From: Telopea speciosissima
Taxonomy: Eukaryota > Streptophyta > Magnoliopsida > Proteales > Proteaceae
NCBI RefSeq assembly: GCF_018873765.1
Contig: NC_057925.1
Span: 8,877,568-8,941,567 of the forward strand
Direction: 5' to 3'
DNA: 64,000 nt
Position numbers and translations under genes: made by a program. Shown here one piece after another: positions 1,677 to 56,200 of this stretch. Position 1 is the stretch's first letter. Each line of letters opens with the position of its first letter. The notes below the pieces were generated by a model. The model was not told the DNA's origin. It saw only the letters and a list, made by a program, of their open reading frames with translations, and ran no database searches.

Positions 1677-19169
<17,493 letters not shown>

Positions 19170-35345: not shown

Positions 35346-37125
35346 AGATGATAAATCCTTAGTTCAAGAATCTCCCTCTTCCCTTTAAGACTAAATATGG
35401 GGAGGATCATTACATATACCCTCAAGGTTTAAAAAATCAGGAATTGGATCGGCGAATCAGCTGATTCAAAAATAAATCGGTCGTGATTGATTCGAGTTCA
35501 GCTGATTCAACACATCTGATTCATGCCAAGAAACCCTAGAATTGCAGAGTTTTTAGATCTGAGGACCGATTCGATCCCTGATCTCATTTTTGAATACGTT
35601 GCATGTCTTGGATCGTGCATGCACTGAGACCAATTTGATGTGAAAAGATTTTCAAAATAGAAAACAAATTAACATAATTGAAAATCTAACGATTGGTACT
35701 GTGATTTGTGTATTGAACCTTCACAAGGTGCTTATAGAATATAAAATCCATTAGAATGTAAACGAATGCAAAATTAATTCCATATTTGATGTAAAATTAT
35801 GCATGAAAATTGAAAAAAAACCTCGCAATGAGGAAAGAAAAATTAGTGAAAATAAACGAAATTAATTGGAAAACCCTAGAGGGCCATACAATTAAACAAT
35901 TAGACAAGTCTATCCATAATGAGTTGAAAGGTTAGAGGTCTTATCTTGCTTCCTGCATACTTGATCTAGAGCCATGATTTGGGTGGCGAAAAGAGGACTA
36001 TCTACGTCTGTAACCTGCAACAAACTATTTTTCAACAAGAAAAGAATCCCTCTTTGAATCGAAATCAATGAAGGTTGCATGTGATTCTCTATTGTAGAAT
36101 GAAACTTTTCAATGGATGCTATCAAATCGAAAAAGTTTGCGACTGGTAATTAGGGTTTTGGTGAAGGAAGAGAAGCTATAGAAATTTATAAGGGAAAGAA
36201 GTTTCTAGAATCAACAAATGTATCATATACATTTACCAAAATACCCTTGTAGTAGTGTAGTACACTACCACTTGACACCCTAACCATTTATCGAATAGCC
36301 ATTGGTATTAATGGCCACCAAGACTAGCTAGATTCACAGCCCAAATCTAGACCTTGCTAATTTGATAATTTGTGGATGCTACGAAATCGAAAAAGTTTGT
36401 AGCAGGAAATTAGGGTTATGGTGAAGAATAAGGAGCAGAAAAGGAAGAGAAATTATAGAAATTTATAAGGGAAAGAAGTTTCTAGAATCAACAAATGTAT
36501 CACATACATTTACCAAAATACCCTGGTAGTAGTGTAGTACACTACCACTTGACACGCTAACCATTTATCGAATAGCCATTGGTATTAAGGGCCACCAAGA
36601 CTAACCAAATTCACCAACCCAAATCTAGATTTTGCTAATTTGATCATTTATGTAAGAGAAGTTGGAGTCTTTGATATATTTTTTTTCTTATAGACAAAGA
36701 TTTAAGTAAATATTATTTATAAAATAATGCCAATTTTTTTTTGTTAACTAAAATAATGCCAAATTAATACATCTTCAAAGTAATGCAAGAACCCAAAAGA
36801 AACCAAATGAAAGTAATGCACTTAATTAATTATAAAACCTATATCTTGAAAACTCTATTCCACTTTAGAGAAAAAATTGCTTGATATAGAATCACTATTC
36901 ATAAATTTATAAGGGTGTGAATATTTCTTATATCAATTTTCATACACACAAAAACAATAAATATTTAATATTCTTTCCTTTCTAATTCATATGGTTTTGT
37001 CACCTTAAATGCTGACAATTGTATAGTCGATACACTTAAAAAGGTCTAAACATTGTAATCTTGTATAAGTTCCGGTTGAAAGGGTTTCAAGAGGGATGGA
37101 CTGGGGTTGGTCCTAACCTTTGGTA
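35346..37125. repeat. Linker repeat L1 (segmental duplication, copy 1)
   Basis: Closely matches 50,926-52,480 (L3) and, more distantly, 45,100-46,650 (L2). Shared blocks include AAACCCTAGAATTGC, GATGTGAAAAGATTTTCAAA, GGAAAGAAGTTTCTAGAATC and CCACTTGACACCCTAACC. Copy 1 has an internal tandem duplication of about 258 bp (from about 36,115 and 36,374). No coding sequence. It continues at 42,608 after the CACTA insertion. Confidence 0.85.
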
Positions 37126-37144
37126 CACTACAAAAAATATGATT

Positions 37145-37565
37145 TTTTGCGACGGTAATAAACCGTCGTCAAAAATAGTTTTCTGTCGCTAAAAATATTG
37201 GCGACGGTAATTTTAACCGGCGCCAGTCCGTCGGCTAAAGTGATGTCGGGGAAAATAACGACGGTAAAACTGCTCCCGTCTAGCAAAATTATTTTTGGCG
37301 ATGCTTTACGTTTCCGTCGCTAAAAATATATTTTTGGCGACGTTTAGTGTTTCTGTAGCTAAAAATATATTTTTGGCGACACATACTTTTTCGTCGCTAA
37401 AAATTTATGTTTTACGACGGTTTTAATCGTCACTATAAATGTCAATATTAGGCGACGGTCTTTGGTATACCGTCAGGAAAAATCTAATTTATATGACGGA
37501 CATTTAAATAACCGTCGGTAAAAATGAATCTTTAGCGACGGTCATATTTTTACCGTCGCCAAAAA
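37145..37565. repeat. CACTA left subterminal repeat array
   Basis: About a dozen GCGACGG / CCGTCG(C/G)(T/C)AAAAAT units spaced 20-40 bp, partly palindromic. Such subterminal motifs are transposase binding sites in CACTA elements. Confidence 0.9.
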
Positions 37566-38839
37566 GCCTCTTTTTTTTTTTTCCCCCTATTTATTATAGG
37601 GTATTCATTGCTTGTAATTCAGAAAGGGAAATTTTCACCTGTAATCTACATCCATATATAATATTCATTCCCTAAAAGAAAAACCATTAACTACAAAATC
37701 CATATAAACATTGCATTAATGCATTGCTTTCCATTAACACAAACTCAAAAGGATTCCTTTAAAATTCACTTTCAATCAACTCTCCACCAATGTTGTTATA
37801 ACCAAAACACCAACAAAAAACAACCCAAAGAGAAAAAGTTTCTAGCCAAAGGAACATCATAATCTAATACTCCTTCCAATAAAATACTTCATCACCGTTG
37901 CTCTCCACATTGCAGATCAAGAACATCATAATTTAGTCCTCCTTCCAATCTCCATTCTTTCGAATTTCATAGTTGGAACTTTCTAGCTTCTAACTTCATT
38001 GCACCTGAAGGAAACATAGATGAACAAATTACAAATAAGTTAAAATCCTTTGAAGGACTAAAATAAACAAAAAGGGATCATCTTGACAAGTCATCATCTT
38101 GGCACTAAGAAGTGGCAAACCATATCCACCTATGAAAGGGCTTCATATTCCTAAGATCTGAGAAGGGACAAGTAAGGGAGGAGAAAGATCAAAATTAAAA
38201 TAAGGGTACTGTTAGTACCACTACAACAGAGTAGGGTTGAAGAAAGAAGAAGAATAGAATAGCTAAGATGGCTAGAGAAGAAGGAGAAGGCAGCCACACA
38301 GCCAGTAGATGCACCACACCAAAATTCTATCTTTCAAAAAACTGCAACTTTCATTGGTTACAACCTTGTATTTAAATAGGAAAATAAAGACTCATATCTA
38401 GACTAAAAATGAAACAAACACTAAATCAAACTCTACCACTGCCTAAAGTAAAACAAAAGATGACAAGAAATCCAAATGATAAATCTAGATCTACATAAAT
38501 AAATAAACTTTGATATCCTACTAAATGAAAACTAAATTTGGACCCGATTCATCTCCATCTAGGCTCCCCATCGAGTTTGGGCTAGTCCAAGGAAGTGTTC
38601 CTGCATCAGATATCCTCTACTAACACTTACCAACAATCTACGATATACAGATACACAAGCACTCAAGCAGCCATCCTCTCATGTAATAAACAAACCACAA
38701 ACTAAAATAAAAATATCTACAAGCTACATATATCACTATTTTGTTAATAGAAAGGTCACCATATTAAACCATCAACAATCATCAATAAGACATGAGAGTG
38801 CGGATCAAAATCCTCACAACAAAAAGAATGGAACAATTC

Positions 38840-39111
38840 CTAACCCACCTCTCTGCATGTTTTGAGTAATTCACTTTCGTCCAGCCTATCTACTTTAACT
38901 AATGCCTCAACATATTCAGCAAGTGCGGAGGGATTGGAATGTAGTGAAGGTTGACTATCAAATAGTCTTATCACTCCTTCTGGATCACTTCGGCGGTAAA
39001 GCTCTTTAAGTAGTTTGGCATCAGTTGCTCCATCTGCTTCACGTGCTCTCCAAGCTAAAGTGCCAACATAGCTTGACAAACGCCTTTGATGCACATCCAA
39101 AAGTCTACTCT
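38840..39111 (-). pseudogene. Captured FtsH (FTSH4/YME1-like) exon fragment in CACTA
   Basis: The minus-strand segment starts at a good splice acceptor (TTTTGCCTGCAG) and reads SRLLDVHQRRLSSYVGTLAW ... KELYRRSDPEGVIRLFDSQP ... LVKVDRLDESELLKT. It matches the N-terminal region, before the AAA domain, of plant mitochondrial FtsH4-type zinc metalloproteases. After LLKT the frame is lost (a QRGGLG-like continuation is visible one frame over), so about 85 codons remain. No AAA ATPase or protease domain is present. Confidence 0.82.
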
Positions 39112-40149
39112 CTGCAGGCAAAAGGAAAAAATATGATGAACAAGTAATCAACAAAATAACCAACTATTAAAATAAAAACCAAAGCGACAGCTGCAAATAT
39201 GCATGGTTTGCTTTGTACAGAAAGAGTCATGAACATCTCTGCCTGTTAAGAAGTTTAGCAACTATTTACTATTCAGTCATAGCAGGCAACCATATAAAGG
39301 TTGGTAACCCAAGCAAGAATATTAGTATCAATAAATTGTTGTGGAGTCGGTCTCTCTGTAGGTGGATTCCTATTTCCTAGGCATTATCTCTTTTCTGCTT
39401 ATCTTGCACTTCTAGTTTCTATTTACCATTATGGCAACCTAATCTAGGTTCCCAATAACATAATCAACCATCATTCCCCATGTTGTCTCCATCAAACCAC
39501 TATGCAACAAAACCCCTAACCTGCTCACTTCAACCTTAGACACCGATTGGAGTGTTTTTCACCTATTTATTTTCTAAAACCCAGTTCATGAAATTATTTA
39601 AGTCCCCTAAACCATTGTTGTTATTCACCTAAAGCTCTAGTTCTACCATCCAAACTTACCCATCACCCATCATTAATTCCAACCCTAGCACTAAACTGAT
39701 CCTACAACCCTCAAGCTACTAGTCTTCCCCTGCTGCAAACAGCAGCAGTTTTAGAATATTTTTACCTAATCGACTACCTAGTTTGGCTGGAGGCTGCATT
39801 AGTTGCAACTATTGGAGATACTACCATTGTGGCACCCTATTATTAGATCAAATTTCTATCAAATTTGGGTATCCTGTGATTGTCCTACATATGGTCAACA
39901 CAGAACAAGGTTTGGGCAACAGAATATAGTAAGACTTTAATTTTTCTTTCCCTCTATATATTTGCTGATGTTATTATATAATAAATCACATTAAATGAAT
40001 TAAGACATGCCAGAACTGACATTCAACCATACCAAAGAAGTGACTCACTGCAGGCTAACAAGCTTACTAATCACACAGTACATTCACCCACTACGATAAT
40101 AAAATTGAATTTAACTATGCAATTAAAAATGGTATATCAGTAATCATAC

Positions 40150-41076
40150 CTTCCCAAGGCCCACATGCACAATGGCAGTTTTGTCAATTTTAAAATCAAT
40201 ACGACCACGTCTCACCTCTTGCATTGCCCCAGTAATATCACTGGTCACTGAAACTAGCTATGTAGCAGGAAGAAAATAATTAAGGGCATTGCGATCGATC
40301 CATATGTTTACATCCATTCAATATCAACAAGTGGATAACTCACTTTGGGGTTTGGCATCAAACCACGTGGTCCAAGAATTCTTGCTATCTGTAACAGGAA
40401 GATCAAAACCTTTATTTGAAGAGAAGTACTAGTTGATTTGGTTATACATAATATAAATAGTATAAAAAATCCCATACCTTTCCAAGACGGGGCATGAAAA
40501 TGGGCATCCCAATACACTTATCAAAATTGAGTTTCCACCACCTGCAAGAATCCAAGTTGAGAAGTTTTATAAGTTAAGATATAGTTCAAATTAGAGAAAA
40601 TATTATATAGTGAGATAACATGATAAGTAACAGTGACTTGGTGATAGCCAAAAAACAGCAAATTTTGTTTTCTCTCTACATGGTCTCAATTCTCATTCTA
40701 GATCCTACTGGTATGACATCGTTTATCGTAAGGATGTAAATAATAGTGTTAAAAAATTAAGGCAAGGTATTATGATAGTCATAATATATAAATTGAAAGG
40801 GAAAGTTCTCCCTCTCAGTTCTCAATGGTTTATTTATCAGAGATCAGAGATTTCATATATTGGAGTATGCAAATTACTATTTTTGATTCCCTCAATAAGC
40901 TCATCTGCTCCAACTATATCAACCCTTGCAGCTCTAGCTTCATCTGCAGCTGCTCCTTCAGCAAACACAGCTACCCGGACAATCTAATAAGCAATATATT
41001 TCCTTTTAATGAACAAAGGAAAATTGAAGGTCACCTTTCCAGTACCATGTGGCAGACTTGCAGCACCACGCACCAT
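40150..41076 (-). pseudogene. Captured ribosomal protein L1 exons in CACTA
   Basis: Five minus-strand exon-like pieces with splice sites. First: 41076-41035 MVRGAASLPHGTGK. Second: 40983 to about 40,855 [20 protein letters not shown] / [14 protein letters not shown]. Third: about 40,544-40,482, in one frame KLNFDKCIGMPIFMPRLGK. Fourth: about 40,391-40,337 IARILGPRGLMPNPK. Fifth: 40238-40150 VTSDITGAMQEVRRGRIDF...IVHVGLGK. FDKCI and AVFAEGA resemble the organellar, probably mitochondrial, bacterial-type L1 rather than cytosolic L10a. N- and C-terminal parts are absent. It is a transduplicated fragment, not a ribosomal gene. Confidence 0.82.
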
Positions 41077-42114
41077 CTATGGCCAAGTCAGATACAATCA
41101 AAGTGTAAATGCAAGTTGAATATCCAATCAATTTAAACACTGAAAATTCTAGTAGCAATAGTTGAAAGACATTAGAATTAAAATAGTTTCATACAACTTG
41201 AAACAACAAACAACTTGAATAGAACTTTTGATTTCCCATCTCACAAATATAGGGTTGAATGTGCCGCTATAAGAGCTGCAACTTATGCCTGGCTTGTATT
41301 TCTTTTGGATAAAAGAGAAGAAAAAAGCAGCATATTACATAACTGCACAGAAAATTTGATAAAGCTTGTCACTCAAAGCACTCCAGGGTAATGAAAATTG
41401 GCAAGCATAACTGTCATTCAAATAGGATTTGATTTTCTGTGAACAGAGTTTTATGAAATCTATAAAATGCATTAAAATCTGGAATATGAGAAAAAGATTA
41501 AAGGAGACACATAGACACCAAAGTATCTCAGATGATCAAAGAACAAATATAGCGCAAAAGATTACCCCCGAACTCCATCTCTCAGATGATGAAATCGCAA
41601 AATGCAGAGTGAGGCTGAAATCTCCAACTCTCACAGCGTCGGTTCCTCGTCTCCTTCTTCCCCTGATGATGAATAACAAGACATTAGCTATTCAAAGTCT
41701 TCTACTCTTCTACTCTCCTCTTTTACACGGGCGATGAAAATGGGATTAAAAATAATACTTGGTACTGATGCATTCAACTTCAAGCCCGCCGGTTCCGTCG
41801 TTATCTCCTTATCCTGGTGGAGCGGTGGAGCAATGGAATAGAGATTGAAAGAGGATTAGAGCGATTGAGAAAGATTTGAGAGAGATTGAGTGAATAATAG
41901 AGCGCAGGGATTTTCAATAGAGGGGGAAAATAGGGTTCTGAACTTCTGATTATGGCTATAGAGATATTAGGGTTTGAGAGATTGAGTAGTGAGAGAGCGT
42001 AAGTTCGGGGGGAGAGTGATAGGAGAGAATGGCGGGATTTTGTGAGGGAATAATGGGTGTTGTTTGGGTTTAAGAGAAAGAAAAGCGGGAAGAGGAAAAT
42101 TGCCAAGTTAAAAG

Positions 42115-42595
42115 CTACTCCTCGACGATGGTAAGAATCCAACCGTCGTCTAAATTCTATTTTCCACGACTGATAACTAAAAAGCGTCGTCCAAAATTTA
42201 TTTTCAACGATTTTTTTTTTTGGTAAGGTATTTTCAACGATGGATAGGTATAAAGCGTCGCCCAAATTCAATTTCAACGACGAATAGTTATAAAACGTTG
42301 CCCCCATTATATTTTCGACGACGGTTAATCCGTGAACGTCGCCCCAATTCCATTTTCGCCGACGGTTAAATGTAAACCGTCGCCCAATATTATATTTTGC
42401 TACAAAAAATTATAAACCGTCGCTTAATTTTACTTTTACCGACGAATAAATATAAACCGTCGTTCTATTATATTTTTCACGACGGAAAATTGTACACCGC
42501 CGCCCAAATTATATAGGGCGATGGTAATAAACTAACCGTCATCGAAAATCATATTTGGCTACGAAACTCTATTTCTACCGTCGGCAAAAATCATA
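42115..42595. repeat. CACTA right subterminal repeat array
   Basis: Dense CGACG(G/A)...(A/T)AACCGTCG units, the inverted counterpart of the left array. The 41,770-42,110 segment between gene fragments and array has no recognised coding sequence. Confidence 0.9.
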
Positions 42596-42607
42596 TTTCT
42601 TGTAGTG

Positions 42608-43430
42608 GTATTTTTTTGCACAAAATTGTCACTAAAAAAAATACTGATTTAAATTAAAATAGAAATTAAATATTCTTCATGATCTTATGAATCACCTCAT
42701 GGGACCTTATGCACCTTATGAGACTTTATGCACCATGCAACATGCATTCTAGGTCGATTTCGCATGTTCTGGCAATAAAAACAACTATTTTTTTCACCTG
42801 AAGATGCGAAATCGACTTAGAATGCATTCCAAGAATGCATACCAAACACTGCTGCTGAATATTATCTAGTTGCTTTGAGAGGATTAAAGAACAATTTCGC
42901 CATAAACTTATTGCTCATGGCAAAATTCGCAATATTGAGTCTTAAACTTCCATTGAATTGCCATTATACCCTTTCGAAAAACTAGCTAGTCTTGTAATGT
43001 AACTTTTCAGAGATTCTATTGCATTCTCTTCATCCCCTGTTTCCTTCTGCAATTAAAGGCCACAAAGATCATTTTCATTCACAAACATCCATAGCAGCTT
43101 CATGTATGTCTTTTAAACTTTGGCACATCTCATTCGAAATCTAACACTTTAACTATTTCATTTTGGAAGAAAATCACTTTGTAATTTCTCTATCATTTTG
43201 ATCATCAAATTTGGCATCTTCATGAAATGCTCATATTTTGAAGGAAAAGCACTTTGTGTGTTTGAGAGAGAGAAAGAGGCTCTAGATAAGATCAAAGAAG
43301 TCTACAATTAATACTGCAAAAGAAATAAATGGAGAAAATTCCTCAGCAAACAACGGCCTACCGCTACAGTTGAATCAAGCTATAAGGGAAATCCGAAAAA
43401 GATACAAAAGAATAGACAGAACTCATAACC
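42608..43430. repeat. Linker repeat L1, continued after CACTA
   Basis: TTTGCACAAAATTGTCACTAA and CATGGGACCTTAT blocks match 52,480-52,570 in L3. A foldback MITE copy (about 42,735-42,850, ending GAATGCATACCAAACACTG) is inserted. The rest resembles the 3' flank of the RFS copies. Confidence 0.75.
42735..42850. mobile_element. Foldback MITE (TTTGGTATGCATTC family), left end degraded
   Basis: Shares CGATTTCGCAT, AACAACTATTTTT, GCGAAATCGACTTAGAATGC and the terminal GAATGCATACCAAACACTG with the complete copy at 48,296-48,416. Confidence 0.75.
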
Positions 43431-53268: not shown

Positions 53269-56200
53269 TTAAACTTGGATTTCAACAGGCCATCTGTACA
53301 TCTCCTCCTCTGGGGCTGGGATGGTCAAAGTCAGTAGTCCAGTGTCAGGGTTGTATTTGAATTCGGTTTCCTTGTTACCCACAGTGCACTTCAGTGGGCG
53401 CTGAGATGAGTAGGCACCAAACCGGCCACATCCCCTGACTTTGAGGACTATGGTTGCAATTGGCGATCTGTTCTCGCTTAGCAAACTTGGATGCTCGGAT
53501 GCAACTTCTCCATCAAACAATTCTGCTTTCTTGTCAGTAGCCTTCTCAACTTCGTATTGCTCCACAGATCCACTGGAGTTGAACATGTCGAGCAGTCCTA
53601 TAGGTGCAAAGGAGATGTTGGATGTCATTTCCTGCATCACAAAAGAGCATGGAATGGGTTAAGAAGGAAATTAGCTTTAAGCTAGCGCAGGCATATATAT
53701 GCAATTGGCTTCAAGAACTAAGAATCATTACGGGCTCACCTTGAGAGGACAGAAGTGGTAGAGTTCATACTCCAGGACCTTTAGGGTCACCGGCAGTGAA
53801 GCACCTTTTGGTAGCCGAATCACCTCCCCTGCAATGGAAAAAATGTATATCATTATTACCACAAGATAGTCTCCCTATTACAATGAAAACTTGTGGTATG
53901 CCACATATTTGGAACTACACATCCAGAAGGCTTTACTCACCTGATTTATGGGCATAGACAATGGTTTCACCATTCCAATCAGCTCCAGCAATTTGAGCCA
54001 TTACTTCAACATCAGTGGCACGGACAGAGCCAGAGAGTGTGCCAGGGGATGCATCGTGAATGCGTGTCTTCTTGGTAATCTTGCACCATCCAGCACCTTG
54101 GCAGTTGAACACACCCACCACGCCAGAGCATTTGTTTGTGTTCCATATTTTCAGCAAGCTGCACATCACATTTTCAACTCTTTTTGTTTTAGCACATAGT
54201 TCTGTAGTTGCAAGTCTCGAAGGAGTTACTATGATTGCTTGATTAGTCATTTCCTTAATAAGAAGGCAGAAGATGGGAGTGGAGCAACAGACCTGGTTCC
54301 ATCTCTAGCAGTGTCCACAAAAAGACAATCACGTGTCGGCCGGCCAGGGAGCTGGGCACGCAGTACAGACCCGTCAGGGAGGACCAGCTTCTTCAAGAGC
54401 TCGAAGTTGTGGTTGCCTGGCTTGTCACTGGGTAGGGCAAAATAAACAAAATCCTCCAATAAGACCCAATAGACTAACAGCTATAAACTCCAAAGGGCTA
54501 GTAGACTACAAGCCCAAGAATACTTTGAAACCAGCATTGCAATTACCAAATCAAAATCCAACAAAAATGCTTAATAGAAGGCAATTTGTACCTGACATAG
54601 ATAGCACAACCACCAATTGCTCGAGCAGCAGCATGATACTCTGCAGCTGGGTGTAGACTCTGCATGGTAGTTAATTCGTTAAGTTAGTGCTCATATATCT
54701 TTGAATGTTTAAACTACCAAGCATGTAGTGCACATGTATCTTATAGAATCAAATAATCAATAACAAAGATATTGGATGCTTGATGATTACTTACATGGAA
54801 CATATCCCAGTCGGGTTGCATGAATTCTCCAAGGAAAAGAGTGTTGTATGCCACCGAGGATATGTGGATGGTGTGAGATGCTGGGTCCCGAGGGTAGAAG
54901 TCATCAGAAGCTCTCACCACAGCCGTCTGCTTGGCACTGTACATCCCATCAGTGTTATGGCACATGCAAGCAATGCAGCCATTGTCAGGGAAGTTGCGAG
55001 CAATGGAGGCTTCTAGGGCCTGGTGATAGGCACGGGTGAGTGCAACACGGCCACCATGGCCTTCCCCAAGGGTCTCAATGATGTTCTGGACATCGACCTT
55101 AACTCCATCAACCCCACAAGAGGCAAGGTAGGCATGAAGCTCGTTATAGAAGTTGAACACCTTCTTTGGGGGCACAAGCCCAAGTCCATGCACAGCAAGG
55201 CTGTCCATGACAATGTCTGGCTGGTTGCCCATTACTCCTGGTGACTGGACTGGGTACGCCAATGCAGTGTCGTAGTGCTCCATGCCTGTAGCAGCCGGTT
55301 TCACCCCACCCCAATAACCAGCAAGTGCATGCCATACATACACAAATCTGCATGAAATCAGAAATAAATGAGAAAATTCAGTTCGATGAATTGGTTTAGT
55401 TAAAAATCTATTTGCCTACTAAAATTGGCGAGGCAAAATGAATGCTTCCTAGAGTGAACTTAATCTCAAAAAAAAAGGATGGTTAGGGGATTGTATGTAC
55501 TCATATGTAATGGCATATCCCACTCGAGTCAATGGGAGCATGGGAGGGGGTGCCTCACAATTCGTATACAAAGGATCCAAATGGTCAAACAGTAAAAAAA
55601 AGTGTCAAGAAGAGAAAGAGAGTGAGAACAATGTATCTTTTCGTCTAATGCTATACATAGGAGAGTATAGCATTAGACGAAGAAATTTAAGATTACAAGA
55701 AGATGCATAGGATTACAGTGTTAAGAAGAGAAAGGAGTGAGAACGATACATAGAAGAGTATAGCAAATTTGAGGCTAAAATTTACAAGCAGTCAAGTTAG
55801 GTAATTCTCTAAATATTCAACAGTCAAATTTGCCACATCATTCATCCATGCTATAAAATCAAACCATTGTTACAAATCCAATTGTAACCAAAGTGGTTAC
55901 AATTAGATTTTTCCTTTATTTAATTACGAGGTGAAGCTCACATAGTTCCATGCAATGAACAAGCATGCTAGACACATGATGACGTATTAACTACCAGGGG
56001 GCATAACCTCTATTCCATAACCAAGAAGAAGAAACAATAGAGGATGGACCACTTACTTCACGTTGTGGTTTTGCTTTGCTTCATCTACGACGATCATCAG
56101 ACCTGGCACTTGGTCATTGTTCTGGCCATTCTTTTGGAACTTTTCATTTTCTTTAATTCCCGTGAGTCTGCTAGCGAATCTGCAAACGTCAATTCAATTG

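What the first reader, a model, noticed from the sequence alone, without database searches (positions are those of the whole stretch)
37126..42607. Gene-capturing (Pack-type) CACTA transposon with two unrelated host gene fragments
Sequence shows perfect CACTA ends, a GTA target duplication and mirror-image subterminal arrays. Inside lie FtsH4-like and ribosomal-L1-like exon fragments, both on the minus strand, with usable splice sites. Pack-type CACTA elements are known to capture genes; combining two organelle-targeted gene fragments in one orientation is notable because read-through could give a chimeric L1-FtsH transcript. No transposase was seen, so it depends on another element.
Basis: partly seen in the sequence, partly recalled or inferred. 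Interest (0 to 1): 0.75.

Follow-up and report, generated by a model that had tools for sequence, protein, structure and literature searches.

The report
Jumping DNA carrying pieces of genes
A 5.5-kb plant "cut-and-paste" jumping element has picked up broken pieces of at least four host genes, spread to eleven places in the same genome, and has relatives that may show how it was stitched together; it is a well-preserved example of a known kind rather than a new system.

Summary
Window 37126-42607 is a non-autonomous Pack-CACTA transposon. Eleven full-length copies were found in its own 823-Mb genome, each with both ends and an exact 3-bp target duplication (11 of 11).

Correction 1: the cargo is not two gene fragments but four identified ones plus one of unknown origin: FTSH4-like (C3), plastid-type ribosomal L1 (C2), CLC chloride channel (C7), HD2-like exon 1 (C8) and a leader-like piece. 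The four identified pieces share one orientation.

Correction 2: an L1-FtsH fusion protein is not supported. All 11 copies share a 1-bp loss in an L1 exon and another in the FtsH exon, and joining all exons gives 26 codons.

Most likely origin (inferred): two neighbouring CACTA elements, each already loaded, fused around an L1 gene. A C5 element carries the same FTSH4 region; a degenerate C6 relative carries the same CLC-HD2-leader series; in our element both pieces are shorter at the side facing L1. Hybrid ends are suggested, not proven. New member of a known kind (compare soybean Tgm-Express1).

The parts
37123..37125 (.). target-site duplication, left copy (GTA)
   Evidence: 11 of 11 genomic copies have an exact 3-bp duplication, 9 different sequences
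37126..38126 (+). left CACTA end: terminal repeat, subterminal array and inner left module, about 1000 bp
   Evidence: shared at 87% over 1005 bp of the consensus with a separate element at C6:40228974-40238219 (L041), ending where the FtsH homology starts
38127..39245 (-). captured FTSH4-like gene fragment (intron, one exon, intron)
   Evidence: substitution-only identity 96.9% to the C3 gene (L035) and 97.0% to a piece beside a CACTA right end on C5 (L036); 93.7% and 95.0% with gaps
38849..39111 (-). FTSH4-like exon; 1-bp deletion near its 3' end in 11 of 11 copies
   Evidence: donor gene has M41 peptidase domain
39246..39253 (.). junction FtsH|L1 with about 8 bp that match neither donor
39254..41297 (-). 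captured plastid-type ribosomal protein L1 gene fragment; about 1.5 kb of donor interior missing at 40059-40067, at a 6-bp microhomology
   Evidence: substitution-only identity 95.3-96.0% to C2 (L038); donor exons and solved structures
40150..40253 (-). L1 exon (SVTSDVTGA...HVGLGK in the donor)
40344..40388 (-). L1 exon (IARILGPRGLMPNPK)
40478..40541 (-). L1 exon with 1-bp deletion (frameshift) in 11 of 11 copies
40878..40983 (-). L1 exon ([36 protein letters not shown])
41035..41076 (-). L1 exon (MVRGAASLPHGTGK)
41293..41355 (-). captured 63-bp piece of a CLC chloride-channel gene; shares CTTGT with the L1 donor at the junction
   Evidence: 93.7% to C7:22301149-22301211 (L045), next to a CLC exon (PF00654, E 7.2e-27)
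41492..41592 (-). captured piece of an HD2/nucleoplasmin-like gene with exon 1 (13 bp, 41566-41578, ATGGAGTTC..., followed by a GT donor)
   Evidence: 88-89% to C8:57480882 (L044), 2.5 kb upstream of an NPL domain (PF17800) on the same strand; that HD2 proteins begin MEFWG is recalled
41591..41945 (-). leader-like captured piece of unknown gene ('leader' is by eye)
   Evidence: 76-80% to C9:18165578, C7:43361465 and C2:51370499
41298..42116 (-). whole right cargo block (CLC, HD2, leader and two bits of unknown source), present in the same order in a degenerate relative on C6
   Evidence: 92%, 89% and 78% in pieces to C6:66358173-66358809 (L039)
42117..42607 (-). right CACTA end: subterminal array and terminal repeat (42576-42607)
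42608..42610 (.). target-site duplication, right copy (GTA)

Best explanation
It is a Pack-CACTA transposon: a non-autonomous CACTA element that carries dead pieces of host genes and is moved by a transposase made elsewhere (the transposase is inferred, not found). Shown: ends, target duplications, 11 copies, donor loci for four gene pieces, junctions, shared frameshifts. Inferred: it arose by fusion of two CACTA elements inserted in the same orientation on either side of (or within) a plastid-type L1 gene. The left parent already carried an FTSH4 piece (like the C5 element), the right parent a CLC-HD2-leader series (like the C6 relic). The inner ends were lost, the outer ends then served as one element, and this spread. 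It most likely makes no useful protein. If transcribed it would give spliced, mostly frameshifted RNAs and could feed small-RNA silencing (inference).
For: Ends, duplications and copies. Donors: C3 FTSH4, C2 L1, C7 CLC, C8 HD2. C5: an A-type left end, the same FTSH4 region over a longer span (L035 2080-4595 in two pieces, against our 3330-4483), and an A-type right end. C6 relic: the same CLC-HD2-leader order with a longer CLC piece (1.18 kb of L039 in four collinear blocks, against our 63 bp) and a decayed right array. Both pieces are thus shorter in our element at the side facing L1, as expected if the inner ends were deleted (model: PMC8903248 section 9; passages of PMC13317346; the model also allows inner ends that are only mutated). 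Substitutions against donor or relic: right block 4-13% (against L039, L042-L045), L1 4.0-4.7%, FtsH 3.0-3.1%. Our left end is closest to C5 (p-distance 0.10) while our right end is far from it (0.35) and nearest the C10 type (0.29). Right-end data reject joining our element with C5 (AU p 5e-4, and 2e-5 on the longer alignment) and with the A-type elements plus C5 (p 0.0075). Frameshifts in 11 of 11 copies. Transitions at CG and CHG sites 7 to 13 times those at A or T sites, as expected of methylated DNA.
Against: The left-end data do not reject grouping our element with the C10 type (AU p 0.45 and 0.37), so hybrid ends are not proven. The C6 relic lacks the last bases of the right end and no left end was found. 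The FtsH piece is also 112 bp shorter than that of C5 at its OUTER side, which the simple model does not predict. Polarised sites give only 1 change shared by our element and C5, against 4 (ours with C3) and 3 (C3 with C5), so one shared FTSH4 capture is not supported by substitutions. FtsH is not more diverged from its donor than L1, though the model would make it the older. No element remnant is seen in the 8 kb read at the L1 donor (L038). No transposase was found.
Confidence: 0.55

Rival explanations
1. The same Pack-CACTA, but the cargo was gained piece by piece inside one element, by template switching during repair of breaks (gap repair with filler DNA), not by fusion of two elements.
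For: Junctions show 2-3 bp, 5 bp and 6 bp microhomologies and one 8-bp filler; the right block is a mosaic of short pieces (63, about 100 and 350 bp); a single element lineage is not excluded by the left-end tree.
Against: The two flanking cargo sets each occur in a separate relative, C5 and C6, and both are shorter in our element at the side facing L1; the right end is of another lineage than that of the nearest left-end relative. Both processes may have acted: template switching for the small pieces, fusion for L1.
Confidence: 0.35
2. A captured chimeric gene that the element keeps and expresses, with selection for an HD2-exon1/FtsH or L1-FtsH product.
For: Leader-like DNA, an HD2 start codon with a GT donor, and the FtsH exon in one orientation; HD2 exon 1 joined straight to the FtsH exon is in frame and gives 94 codons in 6 of 11 copies and 112 in 1 more.
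Against: In 4 of 11 copies this frame is short or has no start; 4 of 32 exon chains reach the FtsH exon in frame and all exons together give 26 codons (consensus); FtsH exon diversity equals that of its noncoding part (0.0147 and 0.0155) and L1 exon diversity is higher than noncoding (0.0336 and 0.0162; 0.0224 and 0.0157 without three copies that align poorly there), though two of the five L1 exons, 45 and 64 bp, are lower; frameshifts in both captured exons.
Confidence: 0.05
3. Two separate CACTA insertions or solo ends that happen to flank resident host gene pieces at this locus.
For: The two ends may be of different lineage.
Against: The whole unit occurs at 11 places with a matching 3-bp duplication at each.
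Confidence: 0.01

Closest known systems
Tgm-Express1 (soybean CACTA element of the wp allele; PMC1947982, abstract and Discussion read)
   Different: There the fragments are shown to be spliced into host transcripts and the element sits in an intron of a flavanone 3-hydroxylase gene; here there are no RNA data, 11 copies are known, and relatives holding parts of the cargo are found
Arabidopsis, rice and maize Pack-CACTA / Pack-TYPE elements (PMC8903248, passages and sections 9 and 10 read)
   Same: CACTACAA terminus, target duplication, clusters of copies, genic DNA from several loci; acquisition by fusion of neighbouring insertions proposed
   Different: Here the left flank, the middle gene and the right flank each have a separate traceable source or relative
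Other elements of the same family in this genome (L041 at C6:40228974-40238219 and nine more with both ends)
   Same: Terminal sequence and subterminal arrays; exact 3-bp duplication in 9 of 10
   Different: L041 shares only the ends with ours; its listed frames (142 aa at most) show no transposase by eye. The interiors of the other nine were read only in part or not at all

Membership tests
CACTA (En/Spm) superfamily | CACTA terminal inverted repeats | tested here: met
   32-nt arms, 91% complementary; 10 of 11 copies start CACTA, 11 of 11 end TAGTG
CACTA (En/Spm) superfamily | 3-bp target-site duplication (defining length recalled) | tested here: met
   11 of 11 copies exact
CACTA (En/Spm) superfamily | subterminal short repeats in both orientations (recalled) | tested here: met
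   CGACGG/CCGTCG arrays at both ends, inverted
CACTA (En/Spm) superfamily | moved by a TNP2-type transposase (Pfam Transposase_21) from a related autonomous element | not tested
   genome search for PF02992 did not complete six times
Pack-CACTA (Pack-TYPE) | non-autonomous: no transposase inside | tested here: met
   by ORF length only: longest stop-to-stop frame 202 aa, across the leader and right array; no domain scan of all frames; most of 38127-42116 matches host loci
Pack-CACTA (Pack-TYPE) | host gene DNA between the ends, with a donor elsewhere in the genome | tested here: met
   four identified donors
Pack-CACTA (Pack-TYPE) | several copies, showing mobility as a unit | tested here: met
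   11 copies, pairwise K2P 0.012-0.030
Pack-CACTA (Pack-TYPE) | fusion of two neighbouring elements as source of cargo (proposed mechanism) | tested here: inconclusive
   two part-cargo relatives for it; the end trees do not settle it
expressed chimeric gene | open frame through the joined L1 and FtsH exons and constraint on it | tested here: not met
expressed chimeric gene | a transcript | not testable with these tools
   no RNA data

The most novel reading that the evidence does not exclude
One genome still holds all three sources of a fused gene-carrying transposon: a left parent type with FTSH4 cargo (C5), a right parent type with CLC-HD2 cargo (C6), and the L1 gene between them (C2). This would be a natural fossil record of two gene-bearing Pack-CACTAs fusing and taking a third gene, so that gene mixing grows by merging already loaded elements.
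Probability: 0.4. Interest if true: 0.6.

Novelty: new member of a known kind. Interest (0 to 1): 0.38.

Why it matters
How plant DNA transposons gain host genes is inferred mainly from a few model species. Here a layered origin of one element can be read from its relatives in a single genome, so the fusion model makes checkable predictions (ends of two lineages, inner truncation, youngest gene in the middle). It also warns annotators that eleven loci carry L1- and FtsH-like exons that are probably not genes.

Tried and rejected
Rejected: resident genes flanked by two insertions. A native transposase interior: most of the interior matches host loci instead. An L1-FtsH fusion protein. One FTSH4 capture shared with C5, as proven: substitutions are star-like, private changes 31 (ours), 22 (C3), 21 (C5). 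Formal incongruence of the two ends of our element: right-end data reject some groupings, left-end data do not reject the right-end one. For the family as a whole, left-end data reject one clade of the right-end tree (p 5e-6) and separate branch lengths fit better (AIC 7725 against 7859, BIC 7988 against 8037), but the matching core-clade tests on right-end data were not significant (p 0.17 and 0.09), so end exchange in the family is likely, not certain.

Weak points kept: the HD2-like piece was found at six places outside the element copies and the C6 relative, of which two, both on C8, have an NPL domain close downstream; the other four have none, and three further NPL genes on C6 have no such piece. 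It may thus itself be a repeated or mobile stretch. The higher L1 exon diversity is partly due to three copies that align poorly and to more CG and CHG sites there.

Led nowhere: transposase search; identity of the leader piece (L042, L043: no clear gene by eye); transcript and small-RNA tests (no data).
Full report
WHAT IS THERE. The window lies at C10:8877568-8941567 of an 823-Mb genome in 1287 contigs. That it is a plant is inferred from gene content (for example a plastid-type L1); the species is not known to me. Window 37126-42607 has CACTA termini, a GTA duplication and inverted subterminal arrays. Searching the own genome with the left 575 bp and the right 608 bp gave 11 places where both occur at 88% or more. 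Other left-end matches are 82% or less when full length (one of 309 bp at 86%, and short array matches up to 87%); other right-end matches are 76% or less apart from a 111-bp cargo piece at 85% on C6 (101 and 92 candidates, the best 40 scored in each, so relatives are undercounted). Eleven of 11 copies have an exact 3-bp duplication. Lengths are 5428-5501 bp in ten and 7481 bp in L034, which has two stretches inserted. Pairwise K2P is 0.012-0.030 and distance to consensus 0.7-1.9%, L034 taken without its inserts.

CARGO. FtsH: window 38127-39245 matches the C3 gene (L035) and a stretch on C5 (L036) at 96.9% and 97.0% counting substitutions only, and the C7 paralogue L037 at 78%. The C3 and C7 genes each have an M41 peptidase domain on the same strand 6-7 kb further on, so these are FtsH genes; the name FTSH4 is recalled from the look of the peptide, with a weak YME1 hit in support (E 0.1). 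Outside the 11 copies the FtsH query hit only C3, C5, C7 and a 46-bp bit of the L1 donor; all 15 candidates were scored. L1: window 39254-41297 matches C2 (L038) at 95.3-96.0% counting substitutions only, introns included, with about 1.5 kb of the donor missing. Seven donor exons spliced give 166 aa with PF00687 at 160 bits. The best two matches among solved structures are 235-aa L1 chains (bacterial, recalled); the third is a 352-aa L1 chain, 4v61_BD (E 1.5e-43), which I recall as spinach chloroplast, against 3.6e-9 for the best chain named mitochondrial. The donor locus was not among the 17 matches of the PF00687 genome search, whose exon-by-exon scoring suits long exons. Right block: 63 bp of a CLC gene (C7; PF00654 in the neighbouring exon); about 100 bp with exon 1 of an HD2/nucleoplasmin-like gene (C8; PF17800 about 2.5 kb downstream on the same strand, in two neighbouring genes; the same piece at four further places has no such domain nearby); and a leader-like piece found at three other places. 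Parts of 41356-41491 and 41946-42116 match only the C6 relative and remain of unknown source. All four identified pieces read on the minus strand; for four pieces that is expected by chance one time in eight.

ARE THE PIECES GENES? No evidence for it. Eleven of 11 copies lack one base in an L1 exon and one at the end of the FtsH exon. All five L1 exons joined after HD2 exon 1 and before the FtsH exon give 26 codons on the consensus; of 32 exon chains 4 reach the FtsH exon in frame, none of them with the frameshifted L1 exon. From the ATG of the first L1 exon the joined L1 exons run 71 codons, about 50 of them in the L1 frame, and stop inside L1. A 94-codon HD2-exon1/FtsH frame exists in 6 of 11 copies, 112 codons in one, 45 or fewer in three, and no start codon in one. 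Nucleotide diversity is 0.0147 in the FtsH exon against 0.0155 in its noncoding part. In L1 exons it is 0.0336 against 0.0162, or 0.0224 against 0.0157 without three copies that align poorly there; by exon it runs from 0.008 to 0.049, and L1 exons are richer in CG and CHG sites. CG and CHG sites show 0.032 and 0.038 transitions per site and copy, CHH 0.009, A and T 0.003 and 0.0045, which I read as methylation.

HOW IT WAS MADE. Three finds bear on it. First, on C5 a left end (C5:37776049) and a right end (C5:37821907; duplication AGC/AGT, one mismatch) of this family enclose, or seem to, 2.5 kb of the same FTSH4 region in two pieces, of which ours keeps 1.15 kb; about 35 kb between the two fetched loci was not read, so that this is one element is inferred. 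Second, a degenerate relative on C6 has the same CLC-unknown-HD2-leader series and, after 1.4 kb of other DNA, a decayed right array without its last bases, but 1.18 kb of CLC in four collinear blocks where ours keeps 63 bp; its left end was not found. Third, L1 lies between these two sets. Both flanking sets are thus shorter in ours at the side facing L1, which fits the fusion of two neighbouring elements described in PMC8903248 (section 9). Against it: the FtsH piece is also shorter by 112 bp on its outer side; our element and C5 share only one polarised derived change, against 4 and 3 for the other pairings; and L1 is not clearly younger than FtsH (4.0-4.7% against 3.0-3.1%).

THE ENDS. With ten relatives that have both ends (9 of 10 with exact duplications), our left end is nearest C5 (0.10), then other A-type elements (0.12-0.17), and 0.19 from the C10 type; our right end is 0.31-0.37 from A-type and C5 and 0.29 from the C10 type; the tenth relative, C9_22.2, is at 0.20 and 0.35. 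The right-end tree separates our element plus the C10 type from the rest with 97-100% bootstrap, and AU tests reject our element with C5 (p 5e-4 and 2e-5) and with A-type plus C5 (p 0.0075). The left-end tree leaves the position of our element relative to the C10 type open (p 0.45 and 0.37 for joining them). Hybrid ends are therefore suggested but unproven.

JUNCTIONS. Left module to FtsH: 2-3 bp shared; FtsH to L1: about 8 bp of filler; inside L1: 6 bp shared at the deletion; L1 to CLC: CTTGT shared.

KNOWN OR NEW. [quoted passage not shown] I searched the paper library twice; neither search was for this species, so I make no claim that this family is unpublished. The value here is the layered history.

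On rereading I corrected the distance of the M41 domains, the identity ranges of other end matches and of the right block, the position of the L31-like frame, and the exon diversity, and added the unread C5 interior and the HD2 places without NPL domain.

Noticed in passing
L036 5651-6025 (C5:37820150-37820524): An intronless frame that looks like 60S ribosomal protein L31 (by eye, not searched), with an A run from 6195, i.e. probably a retrocopy, between the FtsH piece and the right CACTA end on C5.
   Followed up: partly
L035 1-1893 and L037 5571-7910: A PPR-like gene (by eye) next to FtsH is one open frame of 780 aa on C7 and split over several frames on C3; the two FtsH regions look like a duplicated block.
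   Followed up: partly
ends of C1:70201495-70228852 and C4:28759828-28787000 (L049, L052, L062, L065): These family members have left ends 95-96% like L041 but right ends only 72-75% like it, as if ends had been exchanged within the family.
   Followed up: partly
L034 (C3:27360000-27369300): One copy of the element holds two further inserted stretches (713 and 1342 bp), perhaps other mobile DNA.
   Followed up: no
window 42742-42827: A short inverted repeat (two 40-nt arms, 85% complementary, 6 nt apart) just outside the element, MITE-like by eye.
   Followed up: no
window 54741-55415: A raffinose synthase/Sip1-like exon (PF05691, E 1.7e-96); the other long window frames were not scanned.
   Followed up: no
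L042 (C9:18164600-18167000) and L043 (C7:43360500-43362800): A 1.9-kb stretch about 90% alike at two places that matches the leader-like piece; gene unknown.
   Followed up: partly
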